From: an uncultured Bacteroidota bacterium
Lineage (GTDB): Bacteria; Bacteroidota; Bacteroidia; Bacteroidales; P3
Direction of reading: 5' to 3'
Length of the DNA: 64,000 nt
Assembly: GCA_902771735.1 (NCBI GenBank)
Contig: CACXXO010000001.1
Span: 124,001-188,000 of the forward strand
Part shown: piece after piece, positions 4,726 to 54,525 of the stretch
Layout of the letters: the number at the start of each line of letters is the position of its first letter
Position numbering within the stretch: the first letter of the stretch is position 1
Notes under the pieces: generated by a model
The model's input: only the letters and a program-made list of their open reading frames with translations
What the model was told of the DNA's origin: nothing
Databases searched by the model: none
Translations under genes and position numbers: made by a program

Positions 4726-4790
4726 GAACTCCCTACCAACTCCCTACCAACTCCTACCGTGGTAGGAGTTGGTAGGGAGTTGGTAGGGCG
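4726..4790. repeat. 11-nt-periodic dyad element, copy E1
   Basis: A perfect inverted repeat with 28-bp arms (4731-4758 and 4761-4788) and a 2-nt centre GT. The arms are built of 11-nt units of the type CAACTCCCTAC. There is no T-run, so it is not an ordinary terminator. It lies between the GH2 gene and lon. Related elements occur at 16.7, 28.7, 43.6 and 54.4 kb. Confidence 0.85.
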
Positions 4791-4815: not shown

Positions 4816-4832
4816 TTGGCACGGAATTTGCT
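4816..4832 (+). promoter_or_regulatory. Sigma-54-like -24/-12 promoter upstream of lon
   Basis: TTGGCACGGAATTTGCT has GG and GC separated by exactly 10 nt, matching the sigma-54 consensus. It lies about 97 nt before the lon ATG and just after repeat E1. Similar sites precede dnaK and grpE. No activator binding site was identified. Confidence 0.6.
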
Positions 4833-16540: not shown

Positions 16541-16624
16541 ACAGCACAGCCAATCTTCTTAAAAACAGTTAAAAACCAACATCAAACAACTGACCCTCAG
16601 TTACATAAGACATAAAACAACACC

Positions 16625-16743
16625 TAACTGCCTGATTCTTAGTACCAACTCCATATCAACACCGTATCAACTCCGTGTCAACTCCATATCAACTCCTACC
16701 ACAGTAGGAGATGATACGGCTATGGGTCGGTGATGTTACGGCA
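16625..16743. repeat. 11-nt-periodic dyad element, copy E2
   Basis: After a conserved box (TGATTCTTAGTACCAACTCC, about 16633-16652) come units CAACTCCATAT, CAACACCGTAT, CAACTCCGTGT and CAACTCCATAT (16646-16689), then a short hairpin CTCCTAC/GTAGGAG, then purine-rich 11-nt units on the other side. The box and array recur in reverse orientation at 28.7 kb. Confidence 0.8.
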
Positions 16744-16817
16744 GTAAATCCTCTTTGTCATATAATAGTCAGCCACCCGACTGCCAAAATGTCAGTATCC
16801 GTGTCAGTATGTCTATA

Positions 16818-16834
16818 TTGGCACGGATGTTGTT
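16818..16834 (+). promoter_or_regulatory. Sigma-54-like -24/-12 promoter upstream of dnaK
   Basis: TTGGCACGGATGTTGTT shares the first ten bases with the site before lon and keeps the 10-nt spacing, with GT instead of GC at -12. It lies about 118 nt before the dnaK ATG. Confidence 0.5.
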
Positions 16835-28618: not shown

Positions 28619-28691
28619 CATTTTTCCATCAAAAAAACAAAAAAATTTGTCCCAGCCCCACCCATCCATAACGCTTGGCATCTCTACCGTA

Positions 28692-28802
28692 CCATCTCCG
28701 ATCCATCACCGAATCATCTCCGACCCCGGTCGGACTTCAGTCGGACTTGGGTCGGAGTTGAGTCGGACTTGATACGGAGTTGGTACTAAGAATCAGTCAG
28801 TT
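28692..28802. repeat. 11-nt-periodic dyad element, copy E3
   Basis: Nine consecutive 11-nt units from CCATCTCCGAT (28692) to TTGGTACTAAG (28790), changing from pyrimidine-rich to purine-rich around CCCGGTCGG. The right end carries the reverse complement of the E2 box (GGAGTTGGTACTAAGAATCA). It lies between the divergent efflux operon and ffh. Confidence 0.8.
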
Positions 28803-28966
28803 ACATGTTTACTTTTTACGTATAACACACAAATTCAATGCATTAACACTGATTTTTCGCTTGTAACTTACTGATTTCCAATCGCGGCTCGACCAGTAAA
28901 AAAACAGCCGTCAACGGGGTTGAACGGATGTGGAAAAATAAATTTTGCCATGTCGGCCGTTTTTCG

Positions 28967-43381: not shown

Positions 43382-43599
43382 ATTATAGGCCTATAATCAA
43401 AACGCAATATTACAAATAATTTTTGAAATAGAACATATTTTACGAAAAATAATTTCCAAACATCATGTTATCAGCAAGATATTTTTTCACTTCAATGCGC
43501 CCCCACACCTTATTTTACCTCTCGGAAATCGCATTTTTTCCGTTTTTTCAACCCTTTTGAAACGACAAAAAACGCACTTGGCACCAACTTGCTGATAAC

Positions 43600-43674
43600 C
43601 ACCTACCAACACCCTACCAACTCCTAACCAAGTCCTACCACGGTAGGAGTTGATAGGGTGTTGGTAGGGTGTTC
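43600..43674. repeat. 11-nt-periodic dyad element, copy E4
   Basis: Units CAACACCCTAC, CAACTCCTAAC and CAAGTCCTACC (43607-43639) face ACGGTAGGAGT, TGATAGGGTGT and TGGTAGGGTGT, forming an imperfect dyad around CCTACCACGGTAGG. Sequence is closest to E1. It lies between divergent porP and the LemA-like gene. The rest of the 43382-43872 gap holds only the promoter at 43834. Confidence 0.8.
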
Positions 43675-52259: not shown

Positions 52260-54152
52260 TTATTGTTCTTTTACTTTATATTTTTGACCGGGATGATTCT
52301 CTTTTGGAAATAACATCTGTAATACATCCGACATTTGAGGAAGAACCCTATTTCGAATATATGGTTTCGTTTTCCCCAAATACTCAGCGATTTCTGTCGC
52401 CGTTCTCCATTCAGAGCAGTAGGCTATTATCTCACCACGTAGCTTATCTTTGCTCATTCTCGCCGACAATGAGGTTGCACCCTTAGAACTCGAGGTTGCA
52501 CCCTTAGAACTCGAGGTTGCACCCTTGGCGTCCGAGGTTGCACCCTTAATATCCGAGGTTGCACCCTTGGCGTCCAGGGTTGCACCCTTAATATCCGAGG
52601 TTGCACCCTTAGGTCCCGAGGTTGCACCCTTAGCATCCGAGGTTGCACCCTTTAGCGTATAAGTAGTACCACGACCATGTCCCGTTGAATCCAAGAATTC
52701 ATCCTTACATAGTTTTTGCAACAGATGGGTGATGTCTGCAGGATGCATGGCCAACACGTCACGCAGCCGTTCGTTGTTGATGACCTTTTCCGTCAAAGCC
52801 AACGAAAGTACCATAATATCAGATTGTTCCCTATTCTTAAGCCTCGTTCCAAAAGCATGGTTAAGCTCCAAAAGCACCTTTTCGTCAAGCAAGGATTCCA
52901 GGGGCATAACTAGCTCCACCTTGTTGGGTTGGGCTTTTTCTATAGGATATGGACGTTTCCAATTCAGCGTTTCCCATCCTTTTAATATTTTGTCCACTCC
53001 GCTGCCTGCTTTTTCTGCCGATCCTATCATCATGAACATCTGTTGTAGGCTCTTATTTCTACAGACGCTCTCACCTCCTTGATAGTATTGCTGTCTTGAA
53101 ATAAGCATTGTGCCAGGATTGGAGAAGACTATTCTATGAGCATATTTGTTAACCAATAACGAAGACTCTTCGCTATAATCGGCATGAACACATAAGTTGG
53201 CAAAAGCCTCTCGTATAGATTCGTGTGCAGGGGTTTCGTCCCGACGTTGATTGCCTTCCAGTAGAAACGGGGTAGGTATCACCTGCTGTAGCTTAGGCAA
53301 GACTCTACGATAGAACTGGAATAGGTTTGCCTCCCATGTCCCATCCGGACATACGCGGTCCAACCATCTTGTTATAGAAGTATCATCTGGGATCTCCTTG
53401 TAATCGGGGAAGAAATGTGGTGCGCAACTCTGGTCAACGATAGAATCATATTTGCCAAACATAAGCAATCCAGCTAGTGTGAACCCCTCTTCCCCGGTCT
53501 CTCTGTCTTTCCGATAACCACCCAATTTCCGCATCAAAGCTTCGTCGCTCAATGTATGCCAAGGGTGACTGGGCCTTGCTGTAGCGAACAAACGGCGGTA
53601 TTGCTCAAAAGAGGACATGTCGATATCGTCCCACGTGTAGTTCTTCAAGATTCTGCCATCGGCAGGCCTCGTAATATCGGCATCGGCAAACATGCGACTC
53701 ACTTCAACACGACCACACAAGTAGTCTCCCTCGTAGTTGCGGCGGAAAGTACCGTTGAATGCATCCAATGTACAATGTACAGGTCTCTGTTCTCGCTGGG
53801 CTTGGGGTATGTAGAACAATATCACCTTTGCGCCTTCAATCTCCGCCACTTGCACGTCACTGCTCTTCACCAAACAGGAATTAATAGTGTTCTTGTTGTG
53901 TACATTGCTCCAGAAGTCTTTTTGCAATTTGTCGACTTCTTCATCTGTCAAATGATTCAGCGTGTATGTATCGTCCTTCTCTTTCACACCAAGTACTATG
54001 ACACCGCCGTGTGTATTAGCAAAAGCAGAATATGTTTCCCAGAAACTTTTGGGGAAACCGCCTTTGGCAGATTTGAATTCCACTTCATCTGTCTCCCTAT
54101 TCTTCATCAAATTGGAGACAAATATTTGCATATCGTTATAATCGTATGTCAT
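52260..54152 (-). CDS. AlbA/Schlafen-type ATP-binding protein with KGATS heptad repeats
   Basis: The protein has 630 residues from ATG 54152 (MTYDYNDMQIF); ATG 54191 is also possible. The AlbA_2/Schlafen domain is shown by RETDEVEFKSAKGG, FWETYSAFANTHGGVIVLGVKE and LVKSSDV. A GHKL-like C-terminal part of the same family follows (HESIREAFANLCVHADYSEES, IVFSNPGTMLIS, SAEKAGSGVDKILKGW). Then come nine KGATSxx heptads and a final winged-helix (RTATEIAEYLGKTKPYIRNRVLPQM). Such proteins are often called ATP-dependent helicase-like or transcriptional regulators; a defence or regulatory role is inferred from its place inside the type I RM unit. Confidence 0.85.
   Translation of the reverse strand: MTYDYNDMQIFVSNLMKNRETDEVEFKSAKGGFPKSFWETYSAFANTHGGVIVLGVKEKDDTYTLNHLTDEEVDKLQKDFWSNVHNKNTINSCLVKSSDVQVAEIEGAKVILFYIPQAQREQRPVHCTLDAFNGTFRRNYEGDYLCGRVEVSRMFADADITRPADGRILKNYTWDDIDMSSFEQYRRLFATARPSHPWHTLSDEALMRKLGGYRKDRETGEEGFTLAGLLMFGKYDSIVDQSCAPHFFPDYKEIPDDTSITRWLDRVCPDGTWEANLFQFYRRVLPKLQQVIPTPFLLEGNQRRDETPAHESIREAFANLCVHADYSEESSLLVNKYAHRIVFSNPGTMLISRQQYYQGGESVCRNKSLQQMFMMIGSAEKAGSGVDKILKGWETLNWKRPYPIEKAQPNKVELVMPLESLLDEKVLLELNHAFGTRLKNREQSDIMVLSLALTEKVINNERLRDVLAMHPADITHLLQKLCKDEFLDSTGHGRGTTYTLKGATSDAKGATSGPKGATSDIKGATLDAKGATSDIKGATSDAKGATSSSKGATSSSKGATSLSARMSKDKLRGEIIAYCSEWRTATEIAEYLGKTKPYIRNRVLPQMSDVLQMLFPKENHPGQKYKVKEQ
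52474..52652 (-). repeat. 21-bp tandem repeat, 8.5 copies, coding for KGATSxx heptads
   Basis: Units begin at 52474, 52495, 52516, 52537, 52558, 52579, 52600, 52621 and 52642, each with GTTGCACCCTT constant on the + strand and the last ten bases variable (AGAACTCGAG, GGCGTCCGAG, AATATCCGAG and others). Because 21 is a multiple of three, copy changes keep the frame. Confidence 0.95.
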
Positions 54153-54194
54153 TGTGAACTGTTTATTATTGTTCGTATGCGACCAAGTCATTAA

Positions 54195-54332: not shown

Positions 54333-54415
54333 TGTCTTATCTTTAAATTATCACATTTTTCTACCAAAATAATATCAAAAAATCACATTTTTCACAATTC
54401 GATTTATTCGTTACT

Positions 54416-54525
54416 CCTTCTATGTCCCTTCTATGATCCTTCTATAACCCTTCTACGATCCTTCGATGATCCTTCGACGATTCTTTATCACTTGTCCTGT
54501 ACTTGTCCCGAACTTGTCTTGCACC
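54416..54525. repeat. 11-nt-periodic element, copy E5 (tandem, no dyad)
   Basis: Ten units in exact 11-nt register: six of the type CCTTC(T/G)A(T/C)GAT (54416-54481), then TCTTTATCACT, TGTCCTGTACT, TGTCCCGAACT and TGTCTTGCACC. All are pyrimidine-rich on the + strand and the mirrored half seen in E1-E4 is absent. It lies exactly between the two VbhA-like fragments. Confidence 0.75.

What the first reader, a model, noticed from the sequence alone, without database searches (positions are those of the whole stretch)
4726..4790. A dispersed family of 11-nt-periodic intergenic elements (five copies in 64 kb)
Elements at 4.73, 16.65, 28.69, 43.60 and 54.42 kb all consist of units of exactly 11 nt, while the unit sequence differs between copies (CAACTCCCTAC, CAACTCCATAT, TTGGGTCGGAC, CAACACCCTAC, CCTTCTATGAT). 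Four have dyad symmetry in which pyrimidine-rich units on the left mirror purine-rich units on the right; E1 has perfect 28-bp arms. Keeping the period while changing the unit suggests selection on structure (one helical turn, or a long RNA hairpin) or a copying process. I know no named family with these properties.
Basis: seen in the sequence. Interest (0 to 1): 0.78.

Follow-up and report, generated by a model that had tools for sequence, protein, structure and literature searches.

The report
Dispersed hairpins of 11-base units
An uncultured gut Bacteroidales genus carries many short DNA hairpins between its genes, built from blocks of exactly 11 bases whose spelling drifts from species to species while the block length stays fixed; no earlier description turned up in the searches made.

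Summary
Period 11 is the only period from 7 to 20 with strong arrays in the window (5 regions; 0 in 100 shuffles). A 464-kb sample of the same genome has 30 such regions; 71 of 110 period-11 regions in 15 congeners are palindromic. E1-E4 fold as DNA hairpins and are one family; E5 does not fold and is a different, direct array. Whole ordered elements recur at unrelated sites. Eight of 9 sites are occupied in the nearest relative sampled, but in 4 of 4 ortholog pairs a paralog is more similar than the ortholog. Congeners have their own unit spellings. A model of one subfamily hits 35 of 59 congeners and 0 of 148 other genomes of the order; similar direct arrays were seen in two viral contigs and one Pedobacter locus. 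No gene-orientation preference and no G·U excess: selection on an RNA hairpin is not supported. Best reading: a non-coding DNA-level dispersed repeat, MITE/REP-like in behaviour but member of neither, whose module is about one helical turn. Its mover is unknown.

The parts
4731..4788 (.). E1: symmetric element; perfect 28-bp arms 4731-4758 and 4761-4788, units CAACTCCCTAC / CAACTCCTACC mirrored
   Evidence: DNA fold z -10.5; element at the same place in G029
16624..16749 (+). E2: outer-end subfamily element; conserved outer end 16624-16646, then five units, centre, opposite arm
   Evidence: DNA fold z -3.9; not found in the larger orthologous gap of G029
28679..28804 (-). E3: outer-end subfamily element; outer end 28782-28804, TCGG-type units
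   Evidence: DNA fold z -6.0
43585..43673 (.). E4: 11-nt hairpin with one extra unit looped out near the apex
   Evidence: DNA fold z -7.0
54415..54518 (.). E5: direct 11-nt array of another sequence family (CCTTCTATGAT-type, then ACTTGTCCCGA-type units), no dyad
   Evidence: DNA fold z +0.28; by eye similar units at L045:549 and L044:10588

Best explanation
E1-E4 are copies of a non-coding dispersed DNA repeat of one genus of uncultured gut Bacteroidales. Shown: copies recur as whole ordered series of 11-nt units; one subfamily has a conserved outer end; they sit between genes without regard to gene direction; they are kept at orthologous sites among near relatives; they differ by whole units; and unit spelling differs between species. 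Inferred: the element behaves like a MITE or REP and is moved or exchanged by an unidentified DNA-level factor that reads the array one helical turn at a time or as a cruciform, so that length is held at 11 while spelling drifts; unit turnover towards the apex and conversion between copies homogenise the spelling. Not shown: the factor, any single transposition event, any benefit to the cell.
For: Genome-wide abundance; 50 near-identical pairs (at least 75 nt, 85%) among 38 own elements, and in the four copies aligned with flanks the similarity falls off outside the element; outer end always with an array, 18 of 18 in 792 kb; length differences of exactly one unit; 8 of 9 sites shared with G029 and 3 of 4 with G053; closer best paralog than ortholog in 4 of 4 pairs; species spellings; tandem/divergent/convergent gaps 36/20/10 v 103/75/38 gaps of at least 150 bp; no G·U excess; subfamily in 35 of 59 congeners and 0 of 148 other genomes.
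Against: No mover found: the genome has no Y1_Tnp, RVT_1 or DDE_Tnp_1 domain and a single rve domain. Only one end is conserved, no target duplication was seen, and the one presence/absence site has no sharp edges. Concerted change is clear for G029 only: in G000 the median paralog is closer than the ortholog in 2 of 4 pairs, mean identity within G000 (0.774) equals that between genomes (0.776), and the best paralog is the best of several. Farther relatives lack the element at 4 of 4 compared places, which fits gain or loss. AACTCC-type direct 11-nt arrays in two viral contigs, one with 32% GC, and a similar one in Pedobacter are not explained by a genus-bound element. Unrelated-sequence 11-nt families in the genus need the same factor or another cause.
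Confidence: 0.5

Rival explanations
1. The elements are binding arrays for a chromosome-organising or regulatory protein that sits on one face of the helix, 11 bp apart; the AACTCC half is contacted, the other half drifts, and spellings follow co-evolution of protein and sites.
For: Fixed 11-bp step, intergenic place (66 of 85 in called gaps, which are 7.5% of the DNA), sites kept between species, AACTCC half less variable than positions 7-10 of the unit (partly circular since units were chosen by that half).
Against: Families with unrelated units coexist in one genome; whole ordered copies at unrelated sites point to spread; no protein known.
Confidence: 0.22
2. A by-product of replication: polymerase slippage and template switching at hairpins create and perfect 11-nt tandem palindromes; 11 reflects the helical turn and no mover or selection is needed.
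For: Dyads and tandem units together, one-unit length steps, extra units looped out towards the apex in E3 and E4, unrelated spellings with one period, direct-only arrays such as E5.
Against: Shared outer end and long ordered copies at unrelated loci; 0 arrays at this threshold in 154 kb of eight congeners and 196 kb of eight other families.
Confidence: 0.17
3. Transcribed RNA hairpins (terminators, small RNAs or mRNA-end structures) kept by selection on RNA pairing.
For: Stable folds and paired changes in the arms.
Against: No G·U excess; no gene-orientation preference; no Rfam match at the elements; ordinary T-run terminators stand beside some copies (sequence).
Confidence: 0.07

Closest known systems
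BrickBuilt, minisatellite-bearing MITE of Porphyromonas gingivalis (PMC4596501; abstract, outline and passages seen)
   Same: Bacteroidales; intergenic, dispersed, tandem units without spacers, predicted long stem-loops
   Different: 23-nt unit of one sequence, 19 copies, leader and tail with inverted-repeat ends; here 11-nt units with drifting spelling, one conserved end, genus-wide
REP/REPIN repeats moved by RAYT (Y1) transposases (PMC3116915 and PMC3733652 seen in search listings; details recalled)
   Same: Many short intergenic palindromes per genome
   Different: Here longer arrays of 11-nt units, and no Y1 domain found in this genome
Cyanobacterial STRR heptamer repeats (recalled)
   Same: One unit length with different unit sequences, intergenic
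   Different: 7 nt, and to my recollection without the dyad
Integron attC sites (recalled)
   Same: Recognised as a folded single strand with sequence free to vary
   Different: attC sites follow gene cassettes; these are scattered singly. Not tested here

Membership tests
REP/RAYT | Y1 (REP-type) transposase in the genome | tested here: not met
   0 PF01797 matches in G000, 96% complete; 17 of 21 genomes searched have one
REP/RAYT | 20-40-bp palindromes, many, between genes | tested here: not met
   Between genes and many, but arrays of about 60-130 nt or more
MITE | Short, non-coding, multi-copy, dispersed | tested here: met
MITE | Terminal inverted repeats at both ends | tested here: not met
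   The outer-end subfamily has one conserved end; the other is variable
MITE | Target-site duplication | tested here: inconclusive
   One presence/absence site, edges not sharp
MITE | Related autonomous transposon | tested here: inconclusive
   No Y1, DDE_Tnp_1 or RVT_1 domain, one rve domain in G000; other transposase families not searched
BrickBuilt | 23-nt unit with leader and tail | tested here: not met
   Period 11; definition from PMC4596501
STRR heptamer repeats | Heptamer unit | tested here: not met
   Period 11; definition recalled
Intrinsic terminators | Preference for gene 3' ends / convergent gaps | tested here: not met
   10 of 66 in convergent gaps, 38 of 216 gaps of at least 150 bp are convergent
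Integron attC | Integron integrase and cassette array | not tested
   No integrase search was made

The most novel reading that the evidence does not exclude
A mobile or exchanging element addressed by geometry rather than sequence: a DNA-level machine that recognises dyads and steps of one helical turn, so that unit spelling is free to drift or be replaced altogether while the 11-bp step is under strict selection, with several unrelated-sequence families served by the same machine in one genus.
Probability: 0.17. Interest if true: 0.87.

Novelty: new variant of a known kind. Interest (0 to 1): 0.62.

Why it matters
Bacterial dispersed repeats are normally held by sequence recognition (established knowledge). 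Here the conserved character is a length, 11 nt, plus a dyad, while the letters differ between species. That is a satellite-like pattern in a small bacterial genome in which three of four transposition-related domains searched were absent, and it offers a natural test of whether a bacterial element can be maintained by shape and helical phase.

Tried and rejected
Sigma-54 enhancer arrays: 6 of 28 relaxed -24/-12 matches in the G000, G029 and G043 stretches lie within 150 nt of an element (3 of 8 strict ones), including ones before lon and dnaK, but this leaves most elements of those stretches without one; rejected as the general explanation.

RAYT/REP: rejected for lack of a Y1 domain. Copying by a reverse transcriptase of the chromosome: no RVT_1 domain found. 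RNA hairpin: no G·U excess, no orientation bias. Phage or plasmid carriage: E1 has no match among 50,697 phage records and one 30-base match (Vibrio) among 72,556 plasmid records. Against a strictly genus-bound view: an exact two-unit pattern is in 2 viral contigs, both within 11-nt arrays, and Pedobacter planticolens has one similar array (L135); unexplained.

Paper searches (seven) listed no description of such a family. Passages of PMC4060949 (it reports 6-11-bp tandem repeats over-represented between genes of some archaea) and PMC8040213 (palindromic candidate RNAs, some in Bacteroidetes, not compared with ours), and outline with abstract of PMC4666352, were seen.

Biases and dropped rows: one search used a crude longest-ORF caller; 19 of 85 elements fell outside called gaps, 16 in called ORFs (several short) and 3 at stretch ends. 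Most congener stretches were chosen around lon and ffh, and the G053 and stretches around model hits, so their densities are not unbiased. G008 (20 kb) had no region. At a looser threshold (28 of 44) G045, one of the eight empty congeners, has one AACTCC-type array. One search scored at most 59 candidates per genome, and some palindromic copies count on both strands. Two of 18 outer-end matches (L191:5801, L037:16524), which carry one unit more, were left out of alignment A1. Unused: one genome search, three paper searches, seven viral scans.

Full report
OBSERVATION. The five places are real. A sliding comparison of each base with the base p positions on finds 5 regions at p = 11 in the window, the five named, and none at any other period from 7 to 20; 100 dinucleotide shuffles give none. 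E1 has perfect 28-bp arms. Folded as single-stranded DNA, E1-E4 form hairpins (z -10.5, -3.9, -6.0, -7.0) and E5 does not (z +0.28). E1-E4 share one unit type, AACTCC followed by a variable half; E5 is a different direct array.

SCALE. The window is G000:C1:124001-188000 of a 2.29-Mb, 37-contig genome, 96% complete. Two consecutive consensus units with up to 2 mismatches match 64 times, some of them overlapping or in the two arms of one element; the reversed pattern matches 0 times. In 464 kb of that genome there are 30 period-11 regions at 30 of 44 (38 at 28 of 44), against 36 for periods 5-24 other than 11 and 22 together. Simple extrapolation gives about 150-190 per genome. In 1.61 Mb from 15 congeners there are 110 regions at period 11, 71 with arms of at least 22 of 33; period 7 has 77 regions, 11 with such arms; period 22, the harmonic, 50 and 29. 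At 29-30 of 44 there were 0 in 154 kb of eight other congeners and 0 in 196 kb of eight other families; at 28 of 44 one of those congeners has one.

ANATOMY. Sixteen of 18 copies with a shared outer end were aligned: a 23-nt outer end (consensus CTAACTGCCTGATACTTAGTACC), four or five 11-nt units, a centre CCNACC-NN-GGTNGG in most, and an opposite arm of about three units. Three of 16 have one unit fewer, and the two left out have one more. The outer end was not found without an array (18 of 18 matches with up to 6 mismatches in 792 kb). Other copies are symmetric (E1) or carry other outer ends. Units are most alike near the centre. Mirror identity exceeds identity with the mirror shifted by one unit at each of units 1-7 (0.82 v 0.63, 0.74 v 0.66, 0.70 v 0.54, 0.45 v 0.35 for units 1-4; the centre was chosen to maximise the first three) and is similar to identity between neighbouring units of one arm (0.65, 0.74, 0.63, 0.47). 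Sixty-six of 85 elements have at least 20 of 33 arm matches, against 6 of 85 control places.

HOW IT SPREADS AND CHANGES. Fifty pairs among 38 own elements (60-nt flanks included) align over at least 75 nt at 85% or more; in the four copies aligned with flanks similarity falls off outside the element. For G000 elements with both flanks collinear in the sampled DNA, G029 holds an 11-nt array at 8 of 9 places (not at E2, where its gap is 2.9 kb), G053 at 3 of 4, and the more distant G043 and G002 at 0 of 4; in the other direction 4 of 4 G029 elements have one in G000. At shared places spelling differs: at L031:17819 units A2-A5 and B1 carry G in G000 and T in G029 (alignment). In 4 of 4 outer-end pairs the ortholog (0.75-0.82) is less similar than the best paralog in either genome (0.88-0.92) and than the median paralog in G029 (0.85-0.88). 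The G000 median (0.71-0.82) exceeds the ortholog in 2 of 4, and mean identity within G000 (0.774) equals that between genomes (0.776), while within G029 it is 0.861. So homogenisation is clear in G029 and only partial in G000. One gap holds an AACTCC array in G000 and an unrelated-sequence palindromic 11-nt array in G029; a second does so between G043/G000 and G002. With 66 elements in gaps and 216 gaps of at least 150 bp, two arrays in one gap are not remarkable in themselves. A presence/absence site (G053 and G043 with, G002 without) has no sharp edges.

SPELLINGS AND RANGE. The sequence model of the outer-end subfamily matches 35 of 59 genomes of the genus, the own one included (E up to 0.001; 57-61 matches, at the cap, in nine), and of 149 genomes across the order only the own one (E up to 1e-5, stricter filters). 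Copies fetched from six congeners show one architecture with their own commonest units: AACTCCTACTC in G036, AACTCCGACAC in G011, AATTCCGACTC in G003, AACTCCGAGTC in G031, AACTCCCTATC in G023 (3 copies), ATCTTCTTATC-like in G061 (3 copies). The six matches in G021 include near-identical window-type ones; the two listed are on one contig, so misbinning is possible. Named relatives are uncultured Bacteroidales MAGs such as UBA3684 and RGIG10247. Two viral contigs, one with 32% GC, hold AACTCC-type 11-nt arrays, and one Pedobacter locus a similar one; I cannot explain these.

WHAT LEVEL IT ACTS AT. Elements sit in tandem, divergent and convergent gaps 36/20/10 times, close to the share of gaps of at least 150 bp (103/75/38). 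Arm mismatches are not biased to G·T over A·C (20 v 32 sense strand, 22 v 25 outer-end orientation, 77 v 97 over all). Paired changes exist (columns 41-83: GC 5, UA 5, CG 3; 30-94: CG 8, GC 5), but three rival pairings all covary above their shuffles (scores 0.085, 0.126, 0.163), as expected if units change together. B1 is most complementary to A5 (0.877) and B2 to A1 (0.773, against 0.55-0.62 for A2-A4), so the units between look like later insertions towards the apex; E3 and E4 likewise fold with inner units looped out. This favours DNA-level unit turnover over selection on an RNA.

MACHINERY. No Y1_Tnp, RVT_1 or DDE_Tnp_1 domain and one rve domain were found in the genome; other transposase families were not searched. 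E1 has no match in the phage collection and one 30-base match in the plasmid collection. The factor is unknown.

VERDICT. A real dispersed repeat with a fixed 11-nt module, abundant in one genus. It works like a MITE or REP but fails a tested defining feature of each. Its nearest described relative in make-up and host order is BrickBuilt (PMC4596501). Seven paper searches listed no description of it.

Noticed in passing
window 4817-4831 and 16819-16833: Sigma-54-type -24/-12 promoter matches (TGGCACGGAATTTGC, TGGCACGGATGTTGT) shortly upstream of the lon and dnaK genes; a dnaK-side counterpart is in G029 (L188:7262).
   Followed up: partly
window 52471-52658: 21/42-nt tandem repeat inside the open reading frame 52260-54191 (-) of a Schlafen/AlbA_2-domain protein, so a coding 7-residue repeat.
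   Followed up: no
sampled stretches of 15 congeners: Period-7 arrays are the next commonest class: 77 regions in 1.61 Mb, 11 of them palindromic.
   Followed up: no
G003 loci L336-L343: Very long 11-nt arrays (up to about 235 nt) with CCACAAAAGCCGG-like or GGCTTTTGTGGG-like centres.
   Followed up: no
L377:312-414, L378:2805-2965, L135:10408-10473: 11-nt arrays with AACTCC-like units in two viral contigs, one with 32% GC, and a similar array in Pedobacter planticolens.
   Followed up: partly
L140:606-829: A 224-nt 11-nt-periodic direct array in a rumen Bacteroidales MAG.
   Followed up: no
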